DNA from: Peromyscus leucopus
Taxonomy: Eukaryota > Chordata > Mammalia > Rodentia > Cricetidae
NCBI RefSeq assembly: GCF_004664715.2
Contig: NC_051070.1
Location: 47,502,456-47,566,455, forward strand
DNA length: 64,000 nucleotides
Direction of reading: 5' to 3'
Shown: positions 3,403-24,155 of the stretch, one piece after another
Layout: every line of letters begins with the position of its first letter
Numbering within the stretch: the stretch's first letter is position 1
Program-made: the position numbers and the translations under genes
Notes under the pieces: model-generated
Database searches by the model: none
Told to the model about the DNA's origin: nothing
Seen by the model: only the letters and a program-made list of their open reading frames with translations

Positions 3403-3898
3403 TGTGAATTTTTAATCTACAGGTCTTCATTTCTTTCCCACTAATGCCCAAGTGAAAGAATGCATATCATATGACCTGTCTCTCCCCAGCCCGGATGTGT
3501 GTGGTTCATGATCTTGTGTTCTGTGTGGATTTCCGGCAGGGGTTTGCTGCTAGATTCAGAAGTTCATGAAGACTCAGATTTGGCTCTGGGATAGGTTGGA
3601 TTTTCCATTAGGATGCCTGCTGCGTCTGGCTTTGGCTCTTCCTCAATTTTAAATTTCTGACAGCATCAAGTTAGGCCGCACTGGGTTTAACCTCAAGTCT
3701 CACTTCTCTCCTCTAGACTAAAGCACCGTTTCCTGAACGCTGGGGTGGAGCTGAGCTGAGGATGGCTTCTCTAACCTCCCAGCTCCACCTCCCACTGTTT
3801 CTATAGCAGCATCTGCTCTTGGATTTTCTGGCTCTGCTTCCCTCCCCTTTACACAACCTTCTCTTTCTTCTTAATTTTTTTTTTCTAACATTGATTTC

Positions 3899-10793: not shown

Positions 10794-10797
10794 GCCC
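10794..10797. other. left target-site duplication (GCCC)
   Basis: GCCC at 10794-10797 directly abuts the provirus and is repeated exactly at 15940-15943. Four base pairs is the size made by gammaretroviral integrases. Confidence 0.92.
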
Positions 10798-10889
10798 TGA
10801 AAGAACCCCCAGAGGAGATCTTCCTTCAGGAGAGACCCCAAACCCAAGGAACACACCGAAACCACCGATCAGATGCAAAAGCAAGAGGG

Positions 10890-10895
10890 TTTATT
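10890..10895 (-). terminator. polyadenylation signal in the 3' LTR
   Basis: AATAAA on the minus strand, about 70 nt downstream of the TATA box. It would end the proviral transcript in R. Confidence 0.8.
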
Positions 10896-10960
10896 AAATG
10901 CACAGGTACCTGGGGGCCAAGTCTCTTGGAGGACTTGCGCGCCTTCCCAGGGCAAAGGGG

Positions 10961-10970
10961 ACTTTTTATG
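10961..10970 (-). promoter_or_regulatory. TATA box in the 3' LTR
   Basis: CATAAAAAGT on the minus strand. Transcription from here would start near 10936-10940 and read into host DNA to the left. Confidence 0.7.
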
Positions 10971-11417
10971 GGTTTCCAGGGGCAAAGGCGCGGCTACAGG
11001 AGCTAGAGGCATAGTTACAGGGTCCCGATTGGTTGCTTTACAGAAGGCCAGGGTGAACTTGGGTTGCATTCTTTAATTATCAGAAGTTTGATGTGTGGCT
11101 GACTCGTCCTTGCACAAAGTATAGTGGGTGTCTTTCCAGCCCAGCTGCTTATTCCTCAAGGCCAGGGGCCCGCCATAAAATATCCTCATTTAACCCAACT
11201 GTCTTTCTCCCAAGGCCGCTGACCACCATTATCTCCTCCCTAAGCCAGATGGCTGGCCACAGTTATCTCTCCCTCCCAAGGCCGGATGGCTAGTTAGTTA
11301 CAGCTGTGAACTTCTGTCTTTCTGTTTCCTACAGAATGGCGTTTCTTAGGCTAAGTTATGGGGGGCATTACTTCAGCCCAACACCCCATATCCTCATAAT
11401 GGAGTGGGGGTCTTTCA

Positions 11418-11434
11418 TTCCCCCATTTTCTTTT
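11418..11434 (-). other. polypurine tract
   Basis: The minus strand reads AAAAGAAAATGGGGGAA directly next to the TGAAAGA start of the 3' LTR. This is the classic gammaretroviral plus-strand primer, with one T interrupting the purines. Confidence 0.92.
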
Positions 11435-11457: not shown

Positions 11458-11935
11458 TTAAGATGGAGAATAAGGGGTCAGCTCCATCTCTGACTGTCTG
11501 AGTCTCTGATATTGCTGGGTCAGGATCAAAGCCTGGACAACAGAAACCCTATCCCTGATGAATTGCACCAATCTATTGAGGATGCATGGCCCGAACAATA
11601 AAACGAGCAGGAGGATAATTAGGGGCCCATAATGGTGGAGACAAGGGTCGTAAACCATGGTGACCTGTTGAACCATCCTTTAAACCATCTCTGTTGAGCA
11701 TGGCTACTTGGAGCTGTCTGAATTGGCCGGTTTCCATAAGAGCTGCGGTCCCTGTATCTACCCCGGCAGCTATTTTATCTATGGTAATTCCTCCCAGTAA
11801 CAGGGCCAGCGTCAGGGAAACAGGCTCTCTGGTGATGCCCCTCCTAATGTCAGGAGGACTATTAGGGGGATCAAGGGGACCCCCGGGTGAGTCTTATCTT
11901 TAGTGGGTTTAGAGAGCGTTGAACTAGATGTCTCG
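11458..11935 (-). pseudogene. env: env remnant: transmembrane subunit pieces only
   Basis: In proviral sense a hydrophobic membrane-spanning segment followed by a cytoplasmic tail is open at 11458-11676 ([15 protein letters not shown] visible). Upstream (about 11690-11840), in other frames, lies a glycine/alanine-rich segment resembling a transmembrane-subunit N terminus ([14 protein letters not shown] visible). The surface subunit and most of the transmembrane ectodomain are missing, so neither receptor binding nor fusion could be supplied. The remaining parts are joined by deletions and frame changes. A piece near 11900 may be the overlap of the pol end and env start. Confidence 0.8.
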
Positions 11936-12640
11936 GTGCCCTCAGTTTCGTCGGGTTCCTTGGCAGCCTTCACATGCGACGCGTGGACCCAAGCCGCTAT
12001 CCCGTCAACCTCGGCTCTAGGTTCCTGGATTGATGGCGTCGGACCCAGACAGAGTCCCCAATCTTGAATGGGTGAGGCCCCACCGGGCGGTTTAGTTGCT
12101 CCCGGTAGGCAGGGGTTTTCACACCGTCTTTTGTATCAATTGGAGGGCTTGGAGGTGCGCCTCTAGGGTAGGGCTAGTGGCAAAAGAGGAGATATCAGGG
12201 TGAAGGAAATTTTCAATTGGTGGGGGAGCCCCATATATAATCTCGAACGGGGTTAGGCCATGAGGCCCAGGAGTGTTCCGGGCTCGGTAAAGGGCTAGGG
12301 GGAGGAGGAGCACCCAATCTCTAGTGCCAGTTGTAAGCGTTAATTTGGTTAAAGTCTCCTTAATGGTTTTATTTGCACGTTCTGCCTGTCCTGAGCTCTG
12401 GGGGCGGTATGCACAATGAAGTTTCCAATCAATCCCCAGTAGCCTGGCCACCTTCTGACTTACCTGGGAGACGAAGGCGGGCCCATTGTTTGACCCCAAT
12501 ATCTGGGGCATTTCATACCTGGGAAAGATGTCATCCAGGAGTTTTTTGGTTACCACGTTAGCGGTCTCCTTCTTGGTAAGGAAGGCCTCTGTCCATCCAT
12601 GATGTAAGCTTGTCGCTCGGGGCTCCATTCCGCCCCCATT
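11936..12640 (-). pseudogene. pol: integrase remnant, catalytic residue lost and frameshifted
   Basis: The open frame at 12119-12628 carries the second half of an integrase catalytic core and the following linker ([20 protein letters not shown]). The Asp expected in the second catalytic position is Asn (codon at 12488-12490, in LGSNNGPAF), a G-to-A type change. The N-terminal zinc domain and first catalytic Asp are missing because RNase H sequence is fused directly upstream. The C-terminal domain (11936-12118) is broken by a small deletion that changes frame after NLEPR. The product could not integrate DNA. Confidence 0.88.
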
Positions 12641-13204
12641 TTCTTTGTTAGTTCCTGGTCCTCCGGGCTTCCGCCATCCAGAGGGCCTGGGTCAGCGCGA
12701 TCAGCTCTGCTCTTTTGGGCCGATGCTTTAGGTGGCAGTGGTGAGGCCCAAACTACCTCCGATTTGGTGGTGACGGCTGCTCCGGCCCTCCGTTCTTCTT
12801 CTTGGAGGAAGCTGCTCCATCCGTGAACCAGATAAAATCTGTTAGGTCGGAGCGGGTGCCATGGGCCTCCGCCAGAATCTGGAGGCAATTGTGCTCCTTG
12901 GATGGGTCTGGCAAGGGCAGCAGGGTTGCGGGTTGAGGGAGACAACTGGTCTGAACATCATTTGATCTGGTGGCTGTTGGACCAGAGCTTCCACCGCATG
13001 GGAGGATAACACAGTTAATGGCTGCCCCAAAGTCAGTTTCCCTGCATCCTTGAGCAAAACAGCAAGGGCGGCTACCATGCACAGACAGGGGGGCCATCCT
13101 GTAGCTACCGGGTCTAATTTCTTGGATAGATAAGCTACAGGTCTCTTCCATGGCCCCAGTCTCTGTACCAGCACTCCTTTTGCAAAGCCTGAGTTCTCGT
13201 CCAC
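12641..13204 (-). pseudogene. pol: RT connection / RNase H remnant with several frameshifts
   Basis: In proviral sense the connection region is open from 13204 ([20 protein letters not shown] readable). It then shifts frame near 12960 and again near 12790; a TDG motif typical of the RNase H active site is visible in the second frame ([11 protein letters not shown]). Downstream RNase H sequence is deleted and joined to integrase near 12640. The finger and palm regions of RT are entirely absent. Confidence 0.85.
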
Positions 13205-13545
13205 GAACAGTTCAAAAGGCTAGGACTTGTAGGGGGGTCCCTTTGGGTCCTGTCCAGATGCCAGCTGAACCTTTTTCTCGGTGGTCCATCGATACCTCCT
13301 GCTACCTGTGGCCCCCCTGGACCAAAACTGTGCAGTCACTGAGAGAGCCTCCGGTATGGCCCAGGACTGAATGTTGAGCCCCGGTGTCCACTAGGAAGGT
13401 CATTGGCTGCCCCCCCAATCTTGAGAGTTATCTTAGGCTGGGGGGGGGGGCTCCTGGCCGTGACCTCCCCAATCTTCCAGATTGAGGAGGTCCTTGGCCC
13501 TTGGCTTAGGTCTCCGAGACCCTTGAGGCTTCTTTGGGCAGTCAC
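13205..13545 (-). pseudogene. pro: protease remnant joined to RT connection sequence
   Basis: The retroviral aspartic protease signature is readable in proviral sense, [10 protein letters not shown], with DTG encoded at 13380-13388. The protease breaks off at about 13210, where it is joined to the RT connection region, so the rest of protease and all of RT polymerase are gone. Upstream it continues from a nucleocapsid-like basic segment. Confidence 0.82.
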
Positions 13546-13654
13546 GAGCCCAATGTTTTTTTTTTTTCTTTACAGTAAGCATACTGGTCTTTGTTAAGAT
13601 CTCTAGTCCTAACTCCCTCTCTGACCTGTCCCTGAGACATTACAGTGGCCAGGA

Positions 13655-13686
<32 letters not shown>

Positions 13687-14128
13687 ATTTTCCCTGCCTT
13701 TTTAAGTCTTTCCAAAAACGCTGGCGTCTCTTCCTGGTAACCTGAGCCAGATTGGTAGGGGGTCCAGAGTCCCTCGGAGACCCGCTAAGAGCAACTGGCG
13801 ATAGAGACATAGGTGTTCCCTACCTTCGGGGTCGCGGAGTCCCAGTTCGGGCGGGTGAGGGGAAAGGCTGCATTAGGCAATTGGGTGGGTCTTTTATCGT
13901 CTCCTGGAACCTCCGAGCCTCGGAAGACTCGGCTGTCTTTGGCTGGTTTGTGCGCCTTCCTCGTAGGCGACCAGCAATTGGGGAGGGAGCAGGAGCCTTG
14001 CTGTTCAGGGGCCGCTGCAAGAGTGCAGGAGCCGCCGGTCCCTCCGGCGCTGTCGGGGGGGCTGTAACACTCGGGGCGGGGTGACTCGGCATCCATAGGT
14101 GACGCCGCCCCTGAGCTATCTTTCCCAC
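13546..14128 (-). pseudogene. gag: gag remnant: capsid C-terminal part and nucleocapsid
   Basis: Capsid-like sequence is readable in two frames: [18 protein letters not shown] at about 13840-13900, then [18 protein letters not shown] at about 13786-13830, with a frameshift between. After a further deletion a nucleocapsid zinc-knuckle remnant lies at 13540-13600. Its first Cys is replaced by Tyr (QYAYCKEK), and a run of 12 A shifts frame inside the knuckle. A 26-base A run (13656-13681 as T) interrupts capsid/linker sequence. Matrix is absent. Gene identity is firm; exact ends are not. Confidence 0.82.
13656..13681. repeat. poly(T) run, poly(A) in proviral sense
   Basis: 26 uninterrupted T. 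It lies inside gag-derived sequence, where the viral RNA is purine-rich, so it may be replication slippage. Confidence 0.95.
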
Positions 14129-14900
14129 ACCTGGCCGGAGCCGGTCGCGCGGCGCGCCGCCAGGGTGGAAGTGCGCTCCGCGGCGGAAGCATGCTTGGCG
14201 CCGATAGCCGGCCGGGGGAAGTCCCCCGCCGACCCCATCCCTGGCCCCGCCTGTGCGCCCCCGCCATAACCCGCGCCCGCCGCCGCCGCGGGCCTTCGCG
14301 ATCGGATTCCCCTGGTCCGCACCAGTTCTAAGTCAGCTGCTAGGTGCCGGCCGAGGCGAGCCGCCGCGCGCGGAAAACCGCGGCTGGCGCAGCCCGACTC
14401 TCCGCCCGCGCGGGAGACGCGGACGGCCGGGGAGAGCAGGGAGCGAGGAGGGGAGGCCCCCCCCCCAGCGCCGCCCCGGACCCCCGCGACCGCACCGCGG
14501 CCGCGGGGACAGGAGGAGGCGGGGGGAGCACCGGCGCCCGCCGCCGCCGCCGCCGCCGGGGGGACAGGACTGGTCCGCGAGCGCCGGAGCCCGCTGCACT
14601 CGAACTCCGCTTCTGCGGCCCGGCGCCTCAGCAGCTCTCGGCCGGCTCATGCATGGTGGGACCCGGGCTGCCAACGCCGCTCCTGGTGGCTGCGGAGACT
14701 CAGCTGTCGCTCCCTCCCCCCCCCCCCCCCCCCGGGAGGAAATGCCTCCTGCCGGCTCCATCCCGCCGCCTCTGCCGCCGCCGCAGCCGGAGCGGCGGAA
14801 CGCTGGGAGAGGAAACAACACGCTGGTGGAGGGGTCAGGAGGAACGGGGAGCGGGAGAGATCCGCTGATCCGGCTTCCTATGACTGTTTCTAGGAGGAGA
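14129..14900 (-). other. foreign GC-rich block captured between leader and gag
   Basis: About 770 bp, very rich in G, C and CpG, with (GCC)n runs (14540-14560) and a long poly-C/G run (about 14714-14733). It sits between a recognisable retroviral leader and gag, replacing matrix. The base composition is quite unlike the rest of the provirus. One part (14283-14361) is 28S rRNA-like. The remainder may be rRNA expansion-segment sequence or a GC-rich host 5' UTR; I cannot decide by eye. Open frames on both strands (for example 14333-14953 minus, 14253-15152 plus) follow from GC richness and show no domain. Confidence 0.75.
14283..14361 (-). rRNA. 28S rRNA-like fragment inside the provirus
   Basis: The minus strand reads CTAGCAGCTGACTTAGAACT, then GGTGCGGACCAGGGGAATCC, then GATCGCGAAGGCCCGCGGCG. 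I recognise this as the highly conserved mammalian 28S segment around 'GACTTAGAACTGGTGCGGACC'. Compared with the 28S sequence I know, two bases differ (both look like CpG decay) and 21 nt are missing between 'GGAATCCGA' and 'TCGCGAAGG'. The sense matches the proviral RNA. It is a fragment, not a functional rRNA. Identification is from memory, not alignment. Confidence 0.85.
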
Positions 14901-14963
14901 ACGGTTAAACAGAAAACAAAAAACAACAGACAAACACAAATGAGACTTAACACACGCTGCGCA

Positions 14964-15083
14964 GCTTCGGTTCCAGACCGAAAGCAAAACCAGAAAGACC
15001 GTGCCCCAGAGAGGGGACTTCAGGCTTCGGTTCCAAACCGAAAGCAAAACCAGAAAGACCGTGCCCCAGAGAGGGGACTTCAG
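14964..15083 (-). repeat. 60-bp tandem duplication in the leader
   Basis: Two head-to-tail units, 14964-15023 and 15024-15083, differ at one base (14975 G, 15035 A). In proviral sense each unit can form a hairpin around TTCGGTTTGGAACCGAA and a smaller one around CCCCTCTCTGGGG. Confidence 0.92.
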
Positions 15084-15252
15084 ACTCCCCATAGAACGTC
15101 TTCCAGGGGGCAGTGGCGAAGTCCAGGCTCGTCAGCCCTTCCGATCCACTGACTCAGACAGATTATCAGGCGCGCAAACAGACAACATTCAACATTCAGA
15201 CAAACAGACAACACTCAGACAGGACAGAGATGACATACATTAAGGCCGGCCG

Positions 15253-15262
15253 GCTTACCTCC
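15253..15262 (-). other. candidate major splice donor
   Basis: The minus strand reads CAGGAG/GTAAGC about 40 nt downstream of the primer site, a good donor consensus in the position used by gammaretroviruses to make env mRNA. Confidence 0.7.
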
Positions 15263-15299
15263 TGATGGTGGGTCGGTGGTCCCAGGGAGGGGGTCTCAA

Positions 15300-15317
15300 T
15301 CCCCGTACGGGCCACCA
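15300..15317 (-). other. primer binding site matching tRNA-Ile
   Basis: TGGTGGCCCGTACGGGGA on the minus strand, two bases after the 5' LTR. It is complementary to the 3' end of the nuclear tRNA-Ile (AAU) including CCA, as I remember that tRNA. Gammaretroviruses usually use tRNA-Pro or tRNA-Gln. Confidence 0.85.
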
Positions 15318-15411
15318 AATGAAAGAACCCCCAGAGGAGATCTTCCTTCAGGAGAGACCCCAAACCCAAGGAACACACCGAAACCACCGATCAGATGCAA
15401 AAGCAAGAGGG

Positions 15412-15417
15412 TTTATT
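15412..15417 (-). terminator. polyadenylation signal in the 5' LTR
   Basis: AATAAA on the minus strand. In the 5' LTR it is normally bypassed. Confidence 0.75.
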
Positions 15418-15482
15418 AAATGCACAGGTACCTGGGGGCCAAGTCTCTTGGAGGACTTGCGCGCCTTCCCAGGGCAAAGGGG

Positions 15483-15492
15483 ACTTTTTATG
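15483..15492 (-). promoter_or_regulatory. TATA box of the proviral promoter
   Basis: CATAAAAAGT on the minus strand. The predicted start of transcription is about 25 nt downstream, near 15458-15462. This is the promoter that would drive the defective genomic RNA. Confidence 0.75.
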
Positions 15493-15939
15493 GGTTTCCA
15501 GGGGCAAAGGCGCGGCTACAGGAGCTAGAGGCATAGTTACAGGGTCCCGATTGGTTGCTTTACAGAAGGCCAGGGTGAACTTGGGTCGCATTCTTTAATT
15601 ATCAGAAGTTTGATGTGTGGCTGACTCGTCCTTGCACAAAGTATAGTGGGTGTCTTTCCAGCCCAGCTGCTTATTCCTCAAGGCCAGGGGCCCGCCATAA
15701 AATATCCTCATTTAACCCAACTGTCTTTCTCCCAAGGCCGCTGACCACCATTATCTCCTCCCTAAGCCAGATGGCTGGCCACAGTTATCTCTCCCTCCCA
15801 AGGCCGGATGGCTAGTTAGTTACAGCTGTGAACTTCTGTCTTTCTGTTTCCTACAGAATGGCGTTTCTTAGGCTAAGTTATGGGGGGCATTACTTCAGCC
15901 CAACACCCCATATCCTCATAATGGAGTGGGGGTCTTTCA

Positions 15940-15943
15940 GCCC
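15940..15943. other. right target-site duplication (GCCC)
   Basis: Exact repeat of 10794-10797. Confidence 0.92.
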
Positions 15944-16119: not shown

Positions 16120-16639
16120 TGCTGTGGGATGTTCTGTATGTCTGTCCTGTGGGAGCCCGTTCTTGGGTTCCTCGTGGCTTTACCCAGCAGGTCCGTATAG
16201 AGGATGATTAGGACCACGGGCCTGAGTGCAGGTGTCTGAGATGGTCTGCACTTGGCTGTGCTGAGGGATGGTCTGTATGTCAAGTTGCTCTGATTGGTCA
16301 ATAAATAAAACCCTGATTGACCCGTGGCTAGGCAGGAAGTATAGGCAGGACTAACAGAGAGGAGAAATAAAAGAACAGGAAGGCAGAAAGAGTCACTGCC
16401 AGCTACCACCCTCACAAGCAGCATGAAAAGATGCTGGTAAACCACAAGCCATGTGGCAGGGTATAGATTTGTGGAAATGAGTTAATTTAAGCTGTAAGAA
16501 CAGTTAGCAAGAAGCCTGCCATGGCCATACAGTTTGTAAGCAATATAAGTCTCTGTGTTTACTTGGTTGGGTCTGAGCAGCTGTGGGACTGGCGGGTGAC
16601 AGAGATTTGTCCTGACTGTGGGCAAGGACTCTAGCTACA
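16120..16639 (+). mobile_element. solo LTR, longer variant of the 390-bp family
   Basis: It starts TGCTGTGGGATG and ends CTCTAGCTACA. From 16259 onward it matches the other family members (5583, 6906, 27461). The extra 5' part (16120-16258) begins with the family's TGCTGTGGGATG start, so it looks like a longer U3. Flanks CAGAAC and CAGAGT differ at two transitions and may be a decayed 6-bp duplication. Confidence 0.7.
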
Positions 16640-16671
16640 CAGAGTTTTAAACCCTGCCACGCTATTATCAC

Positions 16672-16880
16672 CTTCTTCTTCTTCTTCTTCTTCTTCTTCT
16701 TCTTCTTCTTCTTCTTCTTCTTCTTCTTCTTCTTCTCCTTCTCCTTCTCCTTCTCCTTCTCCTTCTCCTTCTCCTTCTCCTTCTCCTTCTCCTTCTCCTT
16801 CTCCTTCTCCTTCTCCTTCTCCTTCTCCTTCTCCTTCTCCTTCTCCTTCTCCTTCTCCTTCTCCTTCTCCTTCTCCTTCT
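16672..16880. repeat. compound (TTC)n / (TTCTCC)n microsatellite
   Basis: About 21 TTC units (to about 16735) are followed by about 24 near-perfect TTCTCC hexamers. It is an uninterrupted pyrimidine/purine strand asymmetry of about 209 bp. All repetitive Arg, Glu-Gly or Lys-Glu frames over it are artefacts. Confidence 0.97.
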
Positions 16881-17013
16881 TTCCAAGACAGGGTTTCTCT
16901 GTGTAGCTTTGCGCCTTTCCTGGAACTCGCTTTGGAGACCAGGCTGGCCTCAAACTCACAGAGATCCACCTGGCTCTGTGATTAAAGGCGTGTGCCATCA
17001 CCACCTGGCTATT
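16881..17013 (-). repeat. B1 SINE, antisense
   Basis: 'gacagggtttctctgtgtag', 'ctttgcgcctttcctgg' and 'accaggctggcctcaaac'. The 'ctttgcgcctttcc' variant is one I associate with cricetid B1. The microsatellite grew from its tail. Confidence 0.9.
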
Positions 17014-23960: not shown

Positions 23961-24155
23961 TTTTTTTATAATTTATTATTTGTGTTTTATGTACATTGGT
24001 GTTTTGCCTGCATGTATGTCTGTGTGAGGGTGTAGGATCCCCGGGAACAGGAGTTACAGACAGTTGTGAGCTACCATGGGGGTCCTGGGAATTGAACCCA
24101 GGTCCTCTGGAAAAGCAGCCAGTGCTCTTAACCCCTGAGCCATCTCTCCAGCCCC
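23961..24155 (-). repeat. B3 SINE, antisense, with target duplication
   Basis: 'gccatctctccagcccc' end, flanked by 'aagaagcattt' (23950) and 'aagaggcattt' (24156). Confidence 0.88.

What the first reader, a model, noticed from the sequence alone, without database searches (positions are those of the whole stretch)
14283..14361. 28S rRNA-like sequence captured inside a provirus, in viral sense
Seen: between the leader and gag of the provirus, the minus strand carries a 79-bp stretch containing GACTTAGAACTGGTGCGGAC and, after a 21-nt gap, CGCGAAGGCCCGCGGCGG. Known: this matches the highly conserved mammalian 28S segment. Inference: ribosomal RNA, packaged with the viral RNA, was joined by template switching during reverse transcription. 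Same sense as the genome, an internal deletion and CpG-type changes fit this better than a chance DNA insertion.
Basis: partly seen in the sequence, partly recalled or inferred. Interest (0 to 1): 0.9.

Follow-up and report, generated by a model that had tools for sequence, protein, structure and literature searches.

The report
Ribosomal RNA captured inside a provirus
A broken but recently inserted rodent-type retrovirus carries, where the start of its gag gene should be, a scrambled piece that looks like the host's 28S ribosomal RNA, most likely picked up when the viral copying enzyme jumped onto ribosomal RNA.

Summary
The minus strand carries a 5.1-kb MLV-related provirus (15939-10798): LTRs identical at 619 of 620 bases, a 4-bp target duplication, an exact tRNA-Ile primer site and a polypurine tract, but broken gag, pol and env. 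Between leader and p12 tail, a GC-rich block of about 880 bp (14885-14006) stands where matrix and most of p12 should be.

The core is 28S rRNA: its 20-mer equals a published 28S primer; 21 nt are missing, and the best-aligned part shows two differences, both at CpG sites. About 320 further bases match another 28S region (ES7) on both sides of the core, in viral sense. Order: ES7, about 390 bp of unknown origin, ES27 end plus domain IV, ES7 again. Beyond the core this rests on 28S recalled from memory, checked at a few points; Rfam did not confirm the ES7 parts.

Best reading: template switching onto co-packaged 28S rRNA and back, then remobilisation in trans. Not shown: a match to host rDNA, other copies (own-genome search unanswered in 16 tries), the origin of the 390 bp. 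Retroviral capture of host RNA is known; my searches found no report for 28S rRNA in an endogenous retrovirus.

The parts
15320..15939 (-). 5' LTR, 620 bp
   Evidence: 619/620 identical to the other LTR
10798..11417 (-). 3' LTR, 620 bp
15940..15943 (-). target site duplication GGGC, 5' side
10794..10797 (-). target site duplication GGGC, 3' side
15300..15317 (-). primer binding site, 18/18 identical to a published tRNA-Ile PBS
   Evidence: PMC1084362 Table 2 passage
15087..15183 (-). weak gammaretroviral core encapsidation signal-like stretch
   Evidence: Rfam RF00374, 22.8 bits, E 0.74, far below its cutoff of 93; suggestive only
14964..15083 (-). 60-bp tandem duplication in the leader, 98% identical
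14006..14885 (-). GC-rich block without viral protein similarity (76% GC, CpG o/e 0.93)
   Evidence: edges set by eye from where 28S similarity stops and Gag_p12 starts; no retroviral Pfam family in 13 of 13 stop-to-stop pieces of at least 24 aa from 15299-13990
14775..14872 (-). segment A: 28S expansion segment ES7, upstream part
   Evidence: z 19.6 against shuffles; E 5e-17 to recalled mouse, 9e-12 to recalled human ES7; 16/17 to the complement of a published 28S primer; no LSU match in Rfam when cut to size
14385..14774 (-). segment X: about 390 bp GC-rich, origin unknown
   Evidence: weak, CGG-type similarity only: best z 4.5 and 4.9 in sense; unfiltered BLAST also gives hits in both senses here, E 2e-7 sense and 1e-6 antisense
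14049..14274 (-). segment C: 28S ES7, continuing about where A stops
   Evidence: z 17.3 and 11.9 for its halves; E 1e-33; no LSU match in Rfam
13916..14005 (-). tail of Gag p12, where viral sequence resumes
   Evidence: Pfam PF01141 positions 55-82 of 85, E 0.0022, below the curated cutoff
13768..13913 (-). Gag p30 remnant, starting at profile position 61, in two frames
   Evidence: Pfam PF02093, E 1.1e-8 and 3.7e-6
11554..13567 (-). broken nucleocapsid (weak), protease, RNase H, integrase and env pieces
   Evidence: Pfam zf-CCHC_5 (E 0.026), RVP, RT_RNaseH, rve (just below cutoff), MLVIN_C, TLV_coat; integrase piece matches solved retroviral integrases, best E 1e-12
11418..11434 (-). polypurine tract-like stretch directly before the 3' LTR

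Best explanation
The block is host 28S rRNA sequence acquired by an MLV-related, tRNA-Ile-primed endogenous retrovirus. Inferred mechanism: 28S rRNA was packaged with viral RNA; during minus-strand synthesis reverse transcriptase left the viral template in p12, copied 28S ES7, moved at a CGG-rich stretch to domain IV/ES27 of 28S and through sequence of unknown origin, returned to ES7 at almost the same place, and rejoined the viral leader. Matrix and most of p12 were lost. The recombinant kept its LTRs, primer site and polypurine tract, so it could be remobilised with proteins supplied by relatives; the copy here inserted recently by integrase. Shown: provirus anatomy, block position and sense, 28S identity of the core. 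Supported but resting on a recalled reference: the ES7 segments and mosaic order. Inferred: RNA-level capture, co-packaging, trans-mobilisation.
For: 28S core: exact published 20-nt 28S primer, Rfam LSU alignment at the matching place. Wider 28S: in 27 windows of 60 nt across 14960-13861 (40 shuffles each), 10 exceed z=5 in sense and none in antisense (antisense maximum z=3.4); windows wholly in leader or gag flanks stay at or below z=1.2. In the whole 64 kb the hits to recalled 28S with E below 1e-3 all fall in the block. The recognised segments have viral sense. In one search, A and C meet at the same ES7 place (recalled position about 174-189) and X plus B lie between them. The CGG-rich word at the B/C joint recurs in X (21 nt, 95%). 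Block edges share no word over 6 nt and carry no A-run of 7 or more. No matrix piece was found in 13 of 13 stop-to-stop pieces. LTRs, TSD, PBS and PPT are preserved around broken genes, which fits mobilisation in trans. The review PMC4997597 (passages) states that non-viral RNAs can be co-packaged, that nonhomologous recombination often uses a tertiary template at microhomology, and cites a retroviral recombinant holding 7SL sequence.
Against: Segment X (about 44% of the block) does not convincingly match it. Rfam gave no LSU match for segment C or for segment A cut to size, and the core match is below its curated cutoff. A did not appear in the dust-filtered run, only in the unfiltered. Unfiltered BLAST is inflated here: it also gives antisense hits in X with E 1e-6, and with looser scoring the alignment of A runs on through X at 60% identity, so the A/C meeting point depends on scoring. 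The leader itself reached z=3.0 against ES7, though below the best of its shuffles. Other copies and intact relatives could not be examined, so capture at DNA level or as an old family feature is not excluded. The review names 5S rRNA, not 28S, among RNAs present at one copy or more per virion.
Confidence: 0.66

Rival explanations
1. The 28S mosaic already existed in genomic DNA (a LINE-1-made 28S pseudogene or a host transcript holding 28S-like sequence) and the virus transduced it, either by read-through from a neighbouring provirus as proposed for oncogenes or by template switching onto that transcript.
For: 28S/LINE-1 chimeras exist (18 reported), mostly in sense to the LINE-1 and often starting near 28S position 3,636 (PMC13174262 passages). 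Segment X is CpG-rich and not recognisably 28S, as expected if a host transcript contributed.
Against: The jumbled order with ES7 resuming about where it stopped is not a typical pseudogene. No such host locus could be looked for.
Confidence: 0.18
2. DNA-level insertion: a 28S fragment was inserted into an existing provirus by LINE-1 or by break repair.
For: 28S pseudogenes are made by LINE-1 (PMC13174262 passages); the nested arrangement could be a second insertion into ES7. A 26-nt A-run lies at 13681-13656, about 325 bp beyond the block.
Against: No target duplication above 6 nt and no A-run at the block edges; the 26-nt A-run is separated from the block by p12 and p30 sequence; matrix and most of p12 are missing at the same place; the recognised pieces are in viral sense.
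Confidence: 0.08
3. Assembly or cloning artefact: rDNA reads wrongly joined into a provirus.
For: rDNA is collapsed and error-prone in assemblies (general knowledge).
Against: The core differs from 28S by a 21-nt deletion and CpG-site changes; the block sits between leader and p12 in a provirus with clean TSD.
Confidence: 0.05
4. Chance similarity of GC-rich leader sequence to rRNA; the block is ordinary viral leader.
For: ES7 and ES27 are GC-rich and repetitive; weak hits in both senses are common in unfiltered BLAST; Rfam does not confirm A or C.
Against: Shuffles with the same dinucleotides stay far below the segments, and antisense is at background for A, B and C; exact published 28S 20-mer.
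Confidence: 0.03

Closest known systems
Retroviral recombinant containing 7SL RNA sequence (Hajjar and Linial 1993) and tertiary-template patch repair (Duggal 2007, Mikkelsen and Pedersen 2000), all seen only as cited in PMC4997597
   Same: A structural host RNA is patched into a retroviral genome by template switching, with microhomology at the joints.
   Different: Those are described as experimental recombinants; here the RNA appears to be 28S rRNA, in a block of about 880 bp that includes an unknown stretch, in a provirus of an animal-type genome that probably moved again afterwards.
Oncogene-transducing defective retroviruses (recalled; mechanism as cited in PMC4997597)
   Same: Host sequence replaces part of gag, cis-acting ends remain, replication needs a helper.
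   Different: The cargo is rRNA-like sequence; no Pfam domain above its cutoff was found in it.
[quoted passage not shown]
   Same: 28S fragments, mostly in sense, joined to a retroelement during reverse transcription; a hotspot starts near 28S position 3,636, by my recalled numbering close to segment B.
   Different: Those arise at integration, at the 5' end of a LINE-1; here the fragment lies inside an LTR element flanked by viral sequence on both sides.
VL30-type and similar non-autonomous LTR elements (recalled)
   Same: Preserved cis elements and no working genes, packaged by relatives.
   Different: The PBS is tRNA-Ile and the internal block is rRNA-like; family membership was not tested.

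Membership tests
Endogenous gammaretrovirus (MLV-related provirus) | paired LTRs with TG..CA ends | tested here: met
   619/620 identical, TG..CA
Endogenous gammaretrovirus (MLV-related provirus) | 4-bp target site duplication | tested here: met
   GGGC on both sides
Endogenous gammaretrovirus (MLV-related provirus) | gag p12/p30, MLV-type integrase C-terminus, gamma-type env | tested here: met
   Gag_p30, MLVIN_C, TLV_coat above cutoff; Gag_p12 below its cutoff
Endogenous gammaretrovirus (MLV-related provirus) | tRNA primer binding site | tested here: met
   18/18 tRNA-Ile PBS; tRNA-Pro is the usual one for MLV (recalled)
28S rRNA-derived sequence | match to conserved 28S core | tested here: met
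   published 20-mer exact; Rfam LSU 14.7 bits, below cutoff
28S rRNA-derived sequence | match to the host's own 28S, expansion segments included | tested here: inconclusive
   only recalled mouse and human sequence was available; Rfam gave no LSU match for segments A and C; own genome search unanswered (16 tries, last)
LINE-1 processed pseudogene insertion | target duplication of 7-20 bp and A-tail at the insert edges | tested here: not met
   longest shared word 6 nt, no A-run of 7 or more at the edges
Retroviral transduction by template switching | host insert in viral sense, viral sequence on both sides, viral sequence lost | tested here: met
Retroviral transduction by template switching | microhomology at viral-host joints | tested here: inconclusive
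   CGG-rich word at the internal B/C joint; viral-host joints cannot be judged without intact relatives
Non-autonomous LTR element family | several copies with the same block | not tested
   own genome search unanswered

The most novel reading that the evidence does not exclude
This is one copy of a trans-mobilised retroviral family that took 28S rRNA as a lasting part of its leader, and the rRNA block, which keeps its CpG sites (o/e 0.93 against 0.32-0.66 in the other parts of the provirus measured), now serves the element, for example in packaging, in escaping methylation, or in engaging ribosomes.
Probability: 0.12. Interest if true: 0.85.

Novelty: new variant of a known kind. Interest (0 to 1): 0.6.

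Why it matters
If host rDNA confirms it, this is a natural record of a retrovirus recombining with one of the most abundant cellular RNAs and being passed on in a genome. It would make two questions testable: how often rRNA is copied into retroviral genomes, and whether such passengers persist. It also marks a source of false rRNA reads and of rRNA-like repeats in such genomes.

Tried and rejected
Real 28S references: exact patterns of 36 and 21 bases in viral contigs and of 36 bases in genome contigs gave 0 matches each. Relatives of the gag piece and of the integrase piece in viral contigs: 12 and 9 stretches matched a pattern, none confirmed, so intact relatives could not be compared. Rfam on 13500-15500, on 14010-14276 and on segment A alone gave no LSU match; only the core cut to size did. 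A transduced protein gene is not supported: 13 of 13 stop-to-stop pieces of at least 24 aa on the minus strand between 15299 and 13990 showed no retroviral or other Pfam family above its cutoff; the best was Peptidase_M50B, E 0.0051, below cutoff, in a leader piece. Literature: searches (0 papers; 10; 13; 71, of which 25 listed; 19; 3) showed, in their listings, no report of 28S rRNA in an endogenous retrovirus; from them I read passages of PMC13174262 and PMC4997597 only. The library lacks most subscription papers, and PMC2168973 and PMC238240 are not held. Look-ups of 28S and tRNA words in papers: 0 papers; 2; 15; 3. Passages of PMC12025293 (the tRNA is not named there) and PMC9025164 were seen and not used. 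I first thought the primer site was a decayed tRNA-Pro site; it is an exact tRNA-Ile site. A LINE-1 insertion was considered and set lower for lack of hallmarks.

Full report
What is there. The minus strand of the window carries a provirus from 15939 to 10798. Its two LTRs are 620 bp long and differ at one base. They begin TG and end CA and are flanked by the same four bases, GGGC. Two bases after the 5' LTR lies TGGTGGCCCGTACGGGGA at 15317-15300, which is the primer binding site for tRNA-Ile printed in Table 2 of PMC1084362 (passage). A polypurine stretch ends at the 3' LTR. Between these parts, Pfam finds pieces of Gag p12 (weak, E 0.0022), p30, protease, RNase H, integrase (rve just below its cutoff) with the MLV-type C-terminus, and env, spread over different frames and with large parts missing. 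So this is a defective, MLV-related provirus with preserved ends. If the LTRs have not been homogenised by gene conversion, one difference in 620 bases gives an age of roughly 0.1-0.3 My for assumed rates of 3e-9 to 1e-8 per site and year, upper bounds 0.4-1.5 My (the rates are assumed).

The block. Between the leader and the tail of p12 lies sequence of a different kind. From about 14885 (set by eye) to 14006 the GC content is 76% and the CpG observed/expected ratio is 0.93, against 0.51 and 0.32 in the LTR, 0.53 and 0.66 in the leader, and 0.53 and 0.44 in pol-env; the rest of the window has 0.47 and 0.26. The bin 14001-15000 has the highest GC of 64. Matrix and roughly the first two thirds of p12 are missing: p12 similarity starts at profile position 55 of 85 at 14005, p30 starts at profile position 61 at 13913, and 13 of 13 stop-to-stop pieces between 15299 and 13990 show no Gag family.

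The 28S core. The first is a published primer for human 28S rDNA in two papers (passages). Cut to size, the stretch aligns to the Rfam eukaryotic LSU model at positions 2077-2169, 14.7 bits, E 0.058, below the curated cutoff of 50. Against mouse 28S recalled from memory, 44 of 46 bases match at 14352-14307, the two differences being transitions at CpG sites; then 21 nt of 28S are missing, and 18 of 18 bases match at 14302-14285. The similarity runs upstream to 14384 with 92% identity over 83 columns, that is six mismatches and one gap from 14384 to 14302.

More 28S around the core. With the same recalled reference, 14872-14775 (segment A) and 14274-14049 (segment C) match expansion segment ES7, which lies far from the core in the molecule (recalled). 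Against 100 dinucleotide shuffles per test, z is 19.6 for A, 22.3 for the core, 17.3 and 11.9 for the two halves of C; the antisense strand shows nothing above z=1.7 in these segments. In a scan of 27 windows of 60 nt, 10 exceed z=5 in sense and none in antisense, where the maximum is 3.4. A 17-nt word in A differs at one base, a CpG site, from the complement of a published 28S reverse primer (passage of PMC5705821). In the whole 64-kb window the five hits to the recalled pieces with E below 1e-3 are in this block; the best outside is 22 nt with E 0.02. That filtered run did not list A, while unfiltered runs did, E 5e-17 against mouse and 9e-12 against human ES7. The recalled 28S predicts 370 bp for the published amplicon, which the two papers give as 367 and 345 bp, so the recall is close there.

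Results against. Rfam found no LSU match in segment C or in segment A cut to size; ES7 varies between species and may be poorly covered by the model (recalled), but this leaves A and C resting on the recalled reference and one primer. Unfiltered BLAST E-values are inflated in this sequence: X gives a sense hit with E 2e-7 and an antisense hit with E 1e-6 to recalled human ES7. With looser scoring A runs on through X at 60% identity. The viral leader reached z=3.0 against ES7, below the best of its shuffles.

Order. Read in viral sense: leader; ES7 up to a CGG-rich place; about 390 bp without convincing similarity to the recalled 28S (segment X); the end of ES27 and the start of domain IV with the 21-nt gap; then ES7 again from almost the same CGG-rich place; then p12. 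In one search, A and C overlap by some 16 positions on the recalled ES7 (174-189), so ES7 looks continuous, interrupted by X plus B. The CGG-rich word at the B/C joint occurs once more in X (21 nt, 95%). CGG repeats are low in complexity, so this is suggestive only. Two stretches of X are weakly above shuffles in sense: 14440-14385 with z=4.5 against ES7, among 48 tests, and 14560-14501 with z=4.9. X could be fast-evolving ES27 of the host, another part of the 45S unit, or an unrelated host transcript.

How it arose. Reverse transcriptase copies RNA from its 3' side. The arrangement reads as jumps from viral p12 to ES7, to domain IV and ES27, through X, back to ES7, and to the viral leader. 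The recognised pieces share the viral sense, viral sequence is missing at the site, and the edges show neither a shared word above 6 nt nor an A-run, so a LINE-1 insertion is less likely; a 26-nt A-run lies 325 bp further on, beyond p12 and p30 pieces. A review (PMC4997597, passages) reports that non-viral RNAs are occasionally co-packaged and used, that nonhomologous recombination often takes a tertiary template at microhomology, and that a recombinant with 7SL sequence was characterised; it names 5S rRNA, not 28S, among the RNAs present at one copy or more per virion. For LINE-1, PMC13174262 (passages) reports 18 chimeras with 28S, 83% of the segments in sense and often starting near position 3,636, which by recalled numbering is close to the core. 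The last steps, capture at the RNA level and spread with helper proteins, are inferences: preserved ends around broken genes with nearly identical LTRs fit them, and the two CpG-site changes in the core suggest that the block had spent time in genomic DNA before this copy was made, but the numbers are small and rest on recall.

Limits. The own-genome search did not complete in 16 tries (last), and no rodent rDNA or intact relative could be fetched. Hence it is open whether the block is unique to this copy or a family feature, what X is, and how far the 28S parts agree with the host's own rDNA.

Novelty. Capture of host RNA by retroviruses is a known kind of event. Six literature searches (listings, showing 25 of 71, and passages of two papers) showed no case of 28S rRNA in an endogenous retrovirus; the library is partial. 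I therefore call it a new variant of a known kind.

Noticed in passing
15317-15300 (-): An MLV-related provirus with an exact tRNA-Ile primer binding site, not the tRNA-Pro site usual for MLV (recalled).
   Followed up: partly
14964-15083: 60-bp tandem duplication in the viral leader, one difference between the copies.
   Followed up: no
13656-13681 and 13556-13567: Runs of 26 and 12 A (minus strand) interrupt the region between p30 and protease.
   Followed up: no
14716-14733: Run of 18 G (minus strand) inside the unknown segment X.
   Followed up: no
16626-16922: Purine-rich tandem array with 9- and 12-nt steps just upstream of the provirus.
   Followed up: no
24077-24149 (-): Rfam tRNA match just above its cutoff, not called by ARAGORN; perhaps a tRNA-derived SINE.
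   Followed up: no
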